Shown here: piece after piece, positions 5,374 to 44,431 of the stretch
Layout: each line of letters starts with the position of its first letter
How positions within the stretch are numbered: the stretch's first letter is position 1
Origin: Rugamonas rubra
GTDB taxonomy: Bacteria; Pseudomonadota; Gammaproteobacteria; Burkholderiales; Burkholderiaceae_D
Length of the DNA: 64,000 nt
Direction: 5' to 3'
NCBI RefSeq assembly: GCF_900114705.1
Contig: NZ_FOTW01000008.1
Coordinates: 124,001-188,000 of the forward strand
Made by a program: the position numbers and the translations under genes
Notes under the pieces: model-generated
The model's database searches: none
The model's input: only the letters and a program-made list of their open reading frames with translations
Told to the model about the DNA's origin: nothing

Positions 5374-5548
5374 GGGGTCAGTGCCGACATTCGGACACGA
5401 CCTCAACCATATCCCTTCTCACCGATCGATTGCGGCTGAGTCTGTGTCCGAATGTCGGCACTGACCCCGGCTCTCCTCGGCTGAGTCTGTGTCCGAATGT
5501 CGGCACTGACCCCGGCTCTCCTGACCCCGGCTCTCTGACCCCGGCTCT
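5374..5548. repeat. Long GGGGTCAGTGCC palindromic repeat with partial duplications
   Basis: A 25 bp arm at 5374-5398 starts GGGGTCAGTGCCGACATTCG. Its exact reverse complement is at 5444-5468, giving a roughly 95 bp element with an unpaired middle beginning CACGACCTCAACCATA. The right end is then copied again at 5489-5513, and two shorter tails (CTGACCCCGGCTCT) follow to 5548. A second element with the same arms and the same start of the middle section lies at 28414-28509. This is the architecture of REP/REPIN-type elements. The gap 5298-5651 contains this repeat and a terminator and no gene. Confidence 0.85.
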
Positions 5549-42854: not shown

Positions 42855-42871
42855 GATGTCGAAAAAATAAG

Positions 42872-42880
42872 CTATCCACA
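42872..42880 (+). promoter_or_regulatory. DnaA-box-like site upstream of xseA
   Basis: CTATCCACA differs from the consensus box TTATCCACA at one base. It lies 18 bp before the xseA start codon (on the other strand) and 126 bp outside the eight-unit array. Confidence 0.4.
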
Positions 42881-43005
42881 AAAATTGGTGGCGGTCATGC
42901 TTATGTCATATATCAACTAAAACGGCAAGGTTATATTGTAAACATTTGATTATTAAGGGTAAATATTTTTGCCGCATTTGCATGCAGAGGCAAAAAAGCC
43001 TTACG

Positions 43006-44274
43006 GATCAAGCACTTTGGGTTTGCCACCGGCAGTTACGCACAAAGTTATCCACAGAAGATGTGTGGAACTTTGTGTGAGCGATAGTCTTTTTCGTATT
43101 GCTTGTTTGCCACTGCGCAAAATTTATGCAGGGAAAGTATATTATTACAAATCAATGACTTAGTCTCTTATCTGCCGTCTTGCGCACAATTTTATCCACA
43201 GAAGATGTGCAGAACTCGCGACTTGTCCCCACGCGGCGAATGGCGCCAAATAACTGGCGGAGGGCGAACGCGCGCGTTTTCCACTGCGGAAGCTGGCTGC
43301 CTTGTTTTTACTCAAGGCAATAAATCTTATATAAATCAAAGACTTCACGGGCCATCACCTAGCTTGCGCACAATCTTATCCACACAAAATGTGCAGAAGT
43401 GTAGTGTTGCCGCCGATAGCGAGACTAAATCGATTACCTGCCGTATTTGGGTGGTGGAAACGGCCGCTCCGGTGCAGAAGTCGACAAATATTGCCGATCT
43501 GCCATATTTTTATGCATTGCTTAAATATTCTTTAAAAACAAAGACTTGGAGGTTGGTGAGAATGATTGCTAACAATCTTATCCACATTTAATGTGCAGAA
43601 CCGTGGTCTGGCGTGGCGGCCCGCTGGCGCGGGCGCGACCGAGTCGGCGCAGGTTTTACCATGCGTTTTTTTTACGCATGGTAAAAATACCCATACAAAT
43701 CAAGCACTTGATACTTAGCCACGGGCCTTGCTAACAATCTTATCCACAGTTTGTGTGCAGAACTGAGAGTTTTGCCACTTTTGGTGTCCTTAGTCGCTGC
43801 GGCCGGCTCCAAACAGCCGGTCCGGTGGATATCTTCCACCCAGGAAGGGCGATTGCCCTATTTTTGCGCACGGGTATAATATTAATATTTATCAATGACT
43901 TAGCTGTTGATGTCCACCGTTGCACACAATCTTATCAACAGAATATGTGCAGAAGTAGGCACAACTTTTGCTGAGTATATTCGGCCAGCATGGTCGGCTG
44001 CCCGGAGCGGCGCTGCGACTATTTTAGGCTGCTTGACTATGTCTATATAAATCAATGGCTTAGCTAGGCATTGATGGCATTGCGCACAATTTTGTCCACA
44101 GAAAATGTGCAGAACTCCACAAGCTCAGCATTCTGTGGATTGTTTGATGCCGCGCAAACGACGATCGGATTTTTGCTGCGTTTTTGCGCACACCTGAATT
44201 CTCCTTTGAAATCAACGGTCTTCCCGACTGTCAATTGGCTTGCGCACAATCTTATCCACAGAACATGTGCAAAA
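43006..44274 (+). other. Array of eight IHF-site plus DnaA-box units (datA/DARS-like locus)
   Basis: Each unit holds, in order, an IHF-like 13-mer (WATCAANNNNTTR), a 29 bp spacer, a DnaA box, 5 bp, and an inverted box-like TGTGCAGAA. IHF-like sites start at 43006, 43150, 43334, 43536, 43698, 43890, 44050 and 44210. DnaA boxes start at 43048, 43192, 43376, 43578, 43740, 43932, 44092 and 44252. Six boxes are exact TTATCCACA; the sixth is TTATCAACA and the seventh TTGTCCACA. IHF matches are exact in units 2, 5, 6 and 7, and one or two bases off in the others. The last 12 bp of the spacer (TTGCGCACAATC) are conserved and the first 17 are not, yet the length never changes. Units repeat every 144-202 bp with unconserved filler. 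The whole gap 42855-44431 has no gene that I can support. IHF and DnaA binding is inferred from motif matches. Confidence 0.8.
43654..43686. other. Perfect 13-bp-stem hairpin inside the DnaA-box array
   Basis: TTTTACCATGCGT (43654-43666) and ACGCATGGTAAAA (43674-43686) are exact complements around a seven-T loop. The hairpin lies in the filler between units 4 and 5 and is not repeated in other units. The T-run is in the loop rather than after the stem, so it is not a normal terminator. Confidence 0.7.
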
Positions 44275-44410
44275 CCCGCAGCAATGGCCGGCGCCGCCAC
44301 CCTGCGCCGGCCGAATCGCCACTTGCCGAGCGCGGCCCAACAAGTTACATTGCGCCTTTGGGTTGCGCCCTTGTCGCCAGCCCTAGCCGGCGGATTCGAT
44401 CCCGGCCGGT

Positions 44411-44425
44411 TTATCCACACAGGAG
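44411..44425 (+). promoter_or_regulatory. Perfect DnaA box abutting the exbB ribosome site
   Basis: TTATCCACA at 44411-44419 is followed directly by CAGGAG, the ribosome site for the TTG start at 44432. It has no IHF-like site 42 bp upstream and no inverted partner, so it is not a ninth full unit. Confidence 0.55.
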
Positions 44426-44431
44426 TTCGTT

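What the first reader, a model, noticed from the sequence alone, without database searches (positions are those of the whole stretch)
42855..44431. Eight-unit IHF/DnaA-box array: a candidate datA- or DARS-like replication-control locus
Seen: a 1.6 kb gene-free gap with eight units, each an IHF-consensus-like site followed by a DnaA box and an inverted box-like 9-mer. Six boxes are exact TTATCCACA. Known: E. coli datA combines several DnaA boxes with an IHF site and promotes DnaA-ATP hydrolysis; DARS loci combine clustered boxes with IHF/Fis and reload DnaA. Inference: this is a DnaA-control or titration locus, here built as a tandem array. No dnaA, dnaN, rpmH or parAB is in the window, which argues against oriC. 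I know of no description of such an array in this family.
Basis: partly seen in the sequence, partly recalled or inferred. Interest (0 to 1): 0.95.

Follow-up and report, generated by a model that had tools for sequence, protein, structure and literature searches.

The report
Eight-unit array of DnaA-recharging (DARS) sites
A gap between two bacterial genes carries eight copies of a three-site DNA pattern that matches, in orientation and spacing, the E. coli sites that recharge the replication initiator DnaA, each preceded by a predicted IHF-bending site; the array likely recharges DnaA and so would help set when the chromosome starts to copy itself.

Summary
The xseA–exbB gap holds eight modules; the same rule finds none elsewhere in the 64 kb window. 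Each has three DnaA boxes, not two: box III, 3 bp, box II (mostly TTATCCACA), 5 bp, inverted box I. This is the orientation and spacing of the E. coli DARS1 and DARS2 cores, and the rule finds nothing at datA. An IHF-consensus-like site lies at a fixed 16–17 bp ahead of box III, and a Fis-like palindrome ahead of that: the order of DARS2, but compact. Shifting both spacings by 1 bp drops matches from 219 of 349 Burkholderiales genomes to 0. Single cores sit at the same gene junction in other betaproteobacterial families; many Oxalobacteraceae carry 4–9 in a row. Reactivation of DnaA and binding by IHF and Fis are inferred; titration is likely too. My ten paper searches listed no DARS array. 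Verdict: new variant of a known kind.

The parts
42855..44431 (+). Gap between xseA (minus strand) and exbB (plus strand, start 44432) that holds the array
   Evidence: XseA TIGR00237 473 bits; ExbB/TolQ-type protein, below curated cut-offs
42970..43070 (+). Unit 1: Fis-like palindrome 42970-42986, IHF-like 43006-43018 (2 mismatches), box III 43036-43044, box II 43048-43056, box I 43062-43070
43114..43214 (+). Unit 2: Fis-like 43114-43130, IHF 43150-43162 (exact), box III 43180-43188, box II 43192-43200, box I 43206-43214
43298..43398 (+). Unit 3: Fis-like 43298-43314, IHF-like 43334-43346 (1 mismatch), box III 43364-43372, box II 43376-43384, box I 43390-43398
43500..43600 (+). Unit 4: Fis-like 43500-43516, IHF-like 43536-43548 (1 mismatch), box III 43566-43574, box II 43578-43586, box I 43592-43600
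43662..43762 (+). Unit 5: Fis-like 43662-43678, IHF 43698-43710 (exact), box III 43728-43736, box II 43740-43748, box I 43754-43762
43854..43954 (+). Unit 6: Fis-like 43854-43870, IHF 43890-43902 (exact), box III 43920-43928, box II 43932-43940 (TTATCAACA), box I 43946-43954
44014..44114 (+). Unit 7: Fis-like 44014-44030, IHF 44050-44062 (exact), box III 44080-44088, box II 44092-44100 (TTGTCCACA), box I 44106-44114
44174..44274 (+). Unit 8: Fis-like 44174-44190, IHF-like 44210-44222 (2 mismatches), box III 44240-44248, box II 44252-44260, box I 44266-44274
44411..44419 (+). Single exact DnaA box just before exbB, outside the modules

Best explanation
The xseA-exbB gap holds eight tandem modules, each with three DnaA boxes in the orientation and spacing of the E. 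coli DARS core and an IHF-consensus-like site 17 bp ahead of them, and it likely works as a DARS-type locus that turns ADP-DnaA back into ATP-DnaA when IHF, and perhaps Fis, is predicted to bend it. Inferred steps: ADP-DnaA would bind boxes II and I head to head, with box III helping; AAA+ contacts would release ADP; apo-DnaA would leave and pick up ATP. IHF between the core and the Fis-like palindrome would fold each module, as proposed for DARS2. Repeating the module would raise reactivation capacity at one place on the chromosome, and the same boxes would also hold DnaA (titration). Shown directly: the box geometry and its conservation, the preferred IHF-consensus position in array units, the shared gene junction, and the higher copy number in many Oxalobacteraceae.
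For: The rule built from the E. coli consensus and 3/5 spacing finds DARS1 and DARS2 cores, all 8 units, and nothing else in the window. Of 231 TTRTCCACA upstream of exbB in 81 loci, TGTG lies at +5 in 198 and CACA at -3 in 191. The 3/5 pattern is in 219 of 349 Burkholderiales genomes, reversed control 0, 4/6 spacing 0 of 349. IHF consensus within 1 mismatch at -30/-29 in 153 of 234 array units; Fis-like G-N13-C with A/T centre at -66 to -64 in 162 of 234 against 0.003 per position. Order Fis-IHF-III-II-I as in DARS2. IhfA and Hda over their cut-offs; DnaA keeps D269, R285, L290. Array 28.5-32.8% of the circumference from dnaA in six genomes.
Against: No binding or activity was measured. Box III is usually TTGCGCACA, 2 mismatches from consensus, and box I mostly has 1. 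DnaA AID-1 R227, reported important for DARS2, is H here. The Fis homologue scores under its cut-off, and only 24 of 234 units match the full Fis consensus at -65, while looser Fis matches also arise inside the core. IHF lies 16-17 bp from box III, not 58 bp as in DARS2, and the published spacing was sensitive to shifts. Single-core gaps have an IHF match at the fixed place in only 5 of 21. 12 of 74 gaps, some in Oxalobacteraceae, have no core.
Confidence: 0.62

Rival explanations
1. Titration only: the array is a sink of about 24 boxes that lowers free DnaA, like the chromosomal DnaA-box clusters of B. subtilis or Streptomyces, with no effect on the bound nucleotide.
For: 7 of the genome's 27 exact TTATCCACA lie here; datA, DARS1 and DARS2 were reported to act also as titration loci (PMC12371093, passages); clusters elsewhere repress early initiation (PMC5742627, passages).
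Against: A sink needs neither the 3/5 spacing nor the inverted box I, yet both are kept in over 80% of 231 boxes and 4/6 spacing is absent in 349 genomes. It does not explain the placed IHF and Fis-like sites.
Confidence: 0.2
2. datA-like: IHF bending lets DnaA on boxes on both sides meet and hydrolyse ATP, lowering ATP-DnaA.
For: An IHF-consensus site with each core, and the previous unit's boxes on its other side; datA needs one IHF site between boxes (PMC10380432, passages).
Against: The rule finds no core in the datA stretch; the inverted pair there (TTATTCACA and TCATCCACA, L067 2407 and 2419) is 3 bp apart, not 5. The array is about 30% of the circumference from dnaA, not near it.
Confidence: 0.08
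3. A DnaA- and IHF-dependent control region for transcription of exbB or xseA.
For: The last core lies 69-343 bp before exbB in loci with 3 or more cores, and one exact box lies just before the exbB start.
Against: Up to nine units over 1-1.8 kb exceed a promoter's need; the distance to exbB varies fivefold; cores of the same geometry occur at unrelated junctions such as hemE-priA.
Confidence: 0.06
4. A second replication origin, or a mobile or neutral repeat.
For: Tandem DnaA boxes in a gap of 48% GC within a 68% GC window.
Against: dnaA is far away in six complete relatives; GC skew in the window is weak and shows no switch at the array (a weak test); the rule finds no copy elsewhere in the window; the locus is the same across the family and window unit 1 finds unit 1 as best match in 12 of 14 relatives compared.
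Confidence: 0.03

Closest known systems
E. coli DARS2 (rppH-mutH gap; IHF- and Fis-dependent DnaA-reactivating sequence)
   Same: Three-box core with the same orientation and 3/5 spacing; IHF sites on the box III side of the core and Fis sites beyond them.
   Different: One core, not eight; two IHF sites 58 bp from box III instead of one at 16-17 bp; other genes around it; Fis sites mapped by footprint there, only predicted here.
E. coli DARS1 (bioD-uvrB gap)
   Same: Same three-box core. DARS1 at 17.5 min (PMC5742627) is about 33% of the map from oriC (oriC at 84.6 min is recalled), near the 28.5-32.8% seen here.
   Different: One core and no IHF-consensus site within 1 mismatch in its gap.
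E. coli datA
   Same: DnaA boxes with an IHF site.
   Different: No 3/5 core; its inverted pair is 3 bp apart; near oriC.
DnaA-box clusters of B. subtilis and Streptomyces
   Same: Chromosomal DnaA boxes outside the origin, reported to repress early initiation (PMC5742627, passages).
   Different: Their box arrangement was not compared here.

Membership tests
DARS (core class) | Three DnaA boxes with box I opposite to boxes II and III (PMC5742627) | tested here: met
   8 of 8 units
DARS (core class) | The common spacing of DARS1 and DARS2 (5 bp between I and II, 3 bp between II and III as read in MG1655) | tested here: met
   conserved in relatives; 4/6 spacing 0 of 349 genomes
DARS (core class) | Intergenic, between oriC and terminus | tested here: met
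   xseA-exbB gap; 28.5-32.8% of the circumference from dnaA in six relatives; the terminus itself was not mapped
DARS (core class) | Stimulates release of ADP from DnaA and raises ATP-DnaA | not testable with these tools
   Needs biochemistry
DARS2 | IHF and Fis sites required for activity | tested here: inconclusive
   IHF-consensus and Fis-like sequences at fixed places in many array units; binding and need untested
DARS2 | IHF-to-core distance and locus of E. coli DARS2 | tested here: not met
   16-17 bp against 58 bp; xseA-exbB, not rppH-mutH
datA | datA box geometry around one IHF site, close to oriC | tested here: not met
   Inverted pair 3 bp apart in datA against 5 bp here; distance from dnaA
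datA | Promotes hydrolysis of DnaA-bound ATP | not testable with these tools
   Needs biochemistry
oriC | At the GC-skew switch, commonly near dnaA | tested here: not met
   dnaA on another contig, far away in six complete relatives; no skew switch inside the window (weak test)

The most novel reading that the evidence does not exclude
Oxalobacteraceae turned an ancestral single DARS core at the xseA-exbB junction into a helically phased array of compact, complete DARS2-like modules (Fis-like site, IHF site, core): a reactivation hub whose copy number, up to nine, tunes how fast ATP-DnaA is rebuilt.
Probability: 0.42. Interest if true: 0.85.

Novelty: new variant of a known kind. Interest (0 to 1): 0.74.

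Why it matters
DARS1 and DARS2 of E. coli each have one core. Papers seen in passages disagree on reach: DARS-like sequences in many proteobacteria (PMC10380432), DARS2 in beta- or gammaproteobacteria near E. coli (PMC5742627), DARS2 core in gammaproteobacteria only (PMC4245941). A conserved betaproteobacterial locus that repeats core, IHF and Fis-like sites up to nine times would extend the DnaA reactivation switch and offers natural variation in copy number. It makes an open question directly testable: how much of initiation timing comes from the ATP/ADP switch and how much from titration, since spacing changes would keep the boxes but should spoil reactivation.

Tried and rejected
I first took L066 1451-1485 as the DARS2 core; the published 3 bp between IBS1 and IBS2 and the scan place it at 1136-1170, which the rule had found. 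My first gaps for DARS1 and DARS2 were also wrong and were redone. Other arrays: the three class genomes with six or more cores (G661, G775, G823) have them dispersed; G652 (5 cores) and G628 (4) were not mapped. The TTTTTGCGCA motif first read as a fourth DnaA box (58 of 195 later units within one mismatch at -58) is better described by TGC-N11-GCA at -66 (123 of 234); longer hairpin stems there are only slightly commoner than in shuffles. Inter-core spacing shows about 10.5 bp periodicity (R 0.40, n = 58, p about 1e-4), but I chose the 13 representatives and they are related. Position is not fixed outside the family: arithmetic with rounded genome sizes gives roughly 14-47%. Rfam found nothing.

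Full report
Observation. The gap between xseA (minus strand) and exbB (plus strand) holds eight direct units. A rule built only from the E. coli consensus TTWTNCACA and this spacing (up to 1 mismatch in II, 2 in I, 3 in III, 5 in all) gives 8 hits in the gap and 0 in the rest of the window, and 0 in 2,000 shuffles of the gap.

Identity of the core. In E. coli MG1655 the same rule finds one site in the bioD-uvrB gap (DARS1; the locus was recalled) and one in the rppH-mutH gap, and nothing in the stretch with datA. I take the rppH-mutH site as the DARS2 core because two one-mismatch IHF sites lie beside it exactly 3 bp apart, as published for IBS1 and IBS2 (PMC4245941, passages). PMC5742627 (passages) says that the box spacing is the same in DARS1 and DARS2 and that box I is opposite to II and III; PMC8682772 (passages) says that the head-to-head pair I-II stimulates ADP release. 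All eight units have this geometry.

Controls on spacing. In up to 1.7 kb upstream of exbB in 81 loci there are 231 TTRTCCACA on the plus strand. TGTG follows at exactly 5 bp in 198 (next most 22, at 3 bp) and CACA precedes at exactly 3 bp in 191 (next most 15, at 5 bp); 17 such boxes lie on the minus strand. In 349 Burkholderiales genomes the 3/5 pattern with up to one mismatch is in 219 genomes and 94 of 149 genera, and the reversed pattern in 0. With spacings 4/6 it is in 0 of 349. In a class sample with up to two mismatches it is in 177 of 206, reversed control 0. A narrower pattern of the window type was in 175 of 294 genomes of the family, with one reversed-control hit.

The module. Loci with four or more plus-strand cores hold 234 units. 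At -30 or -29 from box III, WATCAANNNNTTR is exact in 94 and within one mismatch in 153. Over all 267 cores the median count at an offset is 0; smaller peaks exist at +13 (24, inside box II) and on the minus strand at -97 (26) and -27 (14). Further upstream, G-N13-C with an A/T-only centre is at -66 to -64 in 162 of 234 against 0.003 per position elsewhere, and TGC-N11-GCA is at -66 in 123 of 234. I call it Fis-like: that Fis sites carry G and C seven bases either side of an AT-rich centre is recalled and agrees with the consensus GNNYANNNNNTRNNC printed in PMC8682772. Exact matches to that full consensus at -65 are only 24 of 234; matches within one mismatch are 97 there but 145 and 159 at two places inside the core, so the consensus alone proves little. 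The order Fis-like, IHF, III, II, I is that of DARS2, but compact: 16-17 bp instead of 58 bp between IHF and box III.

Distribution. Of 80 ExbB-anchored loci (the best 80 of 541 relatives), 73 show xseA upstream; with the window that is 74. A core is in the gap in 62 of 74, and outside it in the locus in 0 of 74 (the 80 loci hold 942 kb). Five gaps also have one core on the minus strand. Plus-strand cores upstream of exbB occur in 65 of 81 loci: one in 21, two in 3, three in 2, four to nine in 39. The 39 are the window and records named Duganella, Rugamonas, Massilia, Pseudoduganella, Janthinobacterium, Undibacterium, Collimonas, one Oxalobacteraceae sp. and one Herbaspirillum sp.; nine cores were seen in one record (L086). 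Copy number varies inside the family: Noviherbaspirillum and Herbaspirillum have 0 or 1 apart from that record, and one Janthinobacterium MAG (L080) has none. Of the 12 gaps without a core, four (L102, L103, L104, L111) keep boxes III and II but not I, two (L133, L138) keep II and I but not III, and L125 has a near-core with a degenerate box II. Records named Rhodocyclaceae, Azospira, Denitromonas and other betaproteobacteria mostly have one core. Among 13 genomes outside the family with a core listed and an exbB, the core lies within 240 bp of exbB in 8 (G490, G345, G508, G297, G420, G386, G448, G340), 0.8 kb away in G572, 1.6 kb in G517, and elsewhere in 3 (G422, G389, G478); G549 had no exbB match. 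In arrays the first unit has the III-II spacer AAG in 27 of 39, which is also the commonest type in single-core gaps (7 of 21), while later units mostly have ATC or ATT (134 of 195). Single-core gaps have an IHF match at the fixed place in only 5 of 21, so the full module seems to belong to the array.

Position. In six array genomes with known contig lengths the array lies 28.5-32.8% of the circumference from dnaA: G048 29.2, G123 28.5, G070 32.8, G201 31.5, G212 31.0 (largest of 7 contigs), G054 30.9 (my arithmetic). With rounded sizes three more of the family (G028, G018, G079) lie near 27-36%. Outside the family the position varies widely.

Trans factors. The genome has IhfA (155 bits, over the cut-off), Hda (223 bits, over the cut-off), a Fis-like protein (87.9 bits, under the cut-off of 99) and a DnaA identical to that of E. 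coli at 248 of 452 aligned residues, keeping D269, R285 and L290 but with H for R227. PMC4245941 names R227 and L290 as important for DARS2, so this point is mixed.

Mechanism. Most likely each module lets ADP-DnaA form the head-to-head pair on II and I that expels ADP, gated by IHF and perhaps Fis. This is inferred from geometry. The array would also titrate DnaA; the two do not exclude each other. datA-like hydrolysis fits the IHF site but not the box geometry.

Novelty. DARS-like sequences are said to occur in many proteobacteria (PMC10380432); one review extends DARS2 conservation to beta- or gammaproteobacteria near E. coli (PMC5742627), while PMC4245941 ties the DARS2 core to gammaproteobacteria. 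So DARS in a betaproteobacterium is not new as such. I read passages of these papers, no whole texts and no supplements, and Fujimitsu 2009, the first DARS paper, was not seen. Searches for DARS with Burkholderia, betaproteobacteria, Pseudomonas or tandem/array, and for DnaA boxes with Oxalobacteraceae or Janthinobacterium listed no paper whose title or abstract start describes a DARS array or this locus; the papers that came up only in those listings were not opened. Hence: a new variant of a known kind.

Noticed in passing
L178:5017-5051 and 5463-5497 (own genome C41:155016 and 155462): Second DARS-like locus between hemE (URO-D domain) and priA (PriA domains), with one strong core and one weaker copy.
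   Followed up: partly
L019-L028 (genus g27 of the same family): All ten loci have two 3/5 cores about 365 bp apart; in L020 they follow a gene that looks like hemE (by eye). In G269, G129 and G207 the site is 9-12% of the circumference from dnaA.
   Followed up: partly
own genome C54:342583 and 343916 (L180:6584), C48:91434: Further single 3/5 cores; the C54 site lies before a PAS-domain gene and has an IHF-like sequence nearby.
   Followed up: no
own genome C38:297422-301581 (L001-L005): Exact TTATCCACA in two divergent pairs about 159 bp apart plus a further box, without the 3/5 core: another DnaA-box element of a different layout.
   Followed up: no
L084, L085, L093, L115: The xseA-exbB gap is enlarged to 2.1-4.7 kb although the array is kept, which suggests inserted DNA beside it.
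   Followed up: no
L042 (own genome C81:5301-5748): The stretch just upstream of dnaA has one exact TTATCCACA, fewer than the array; oriC itself was not mapped.
   Followed up: no
G661, G775, G823: Gammaproteobacterial genomes with 6-8 dispersed 3/5 cores each.
   Followed up: partly
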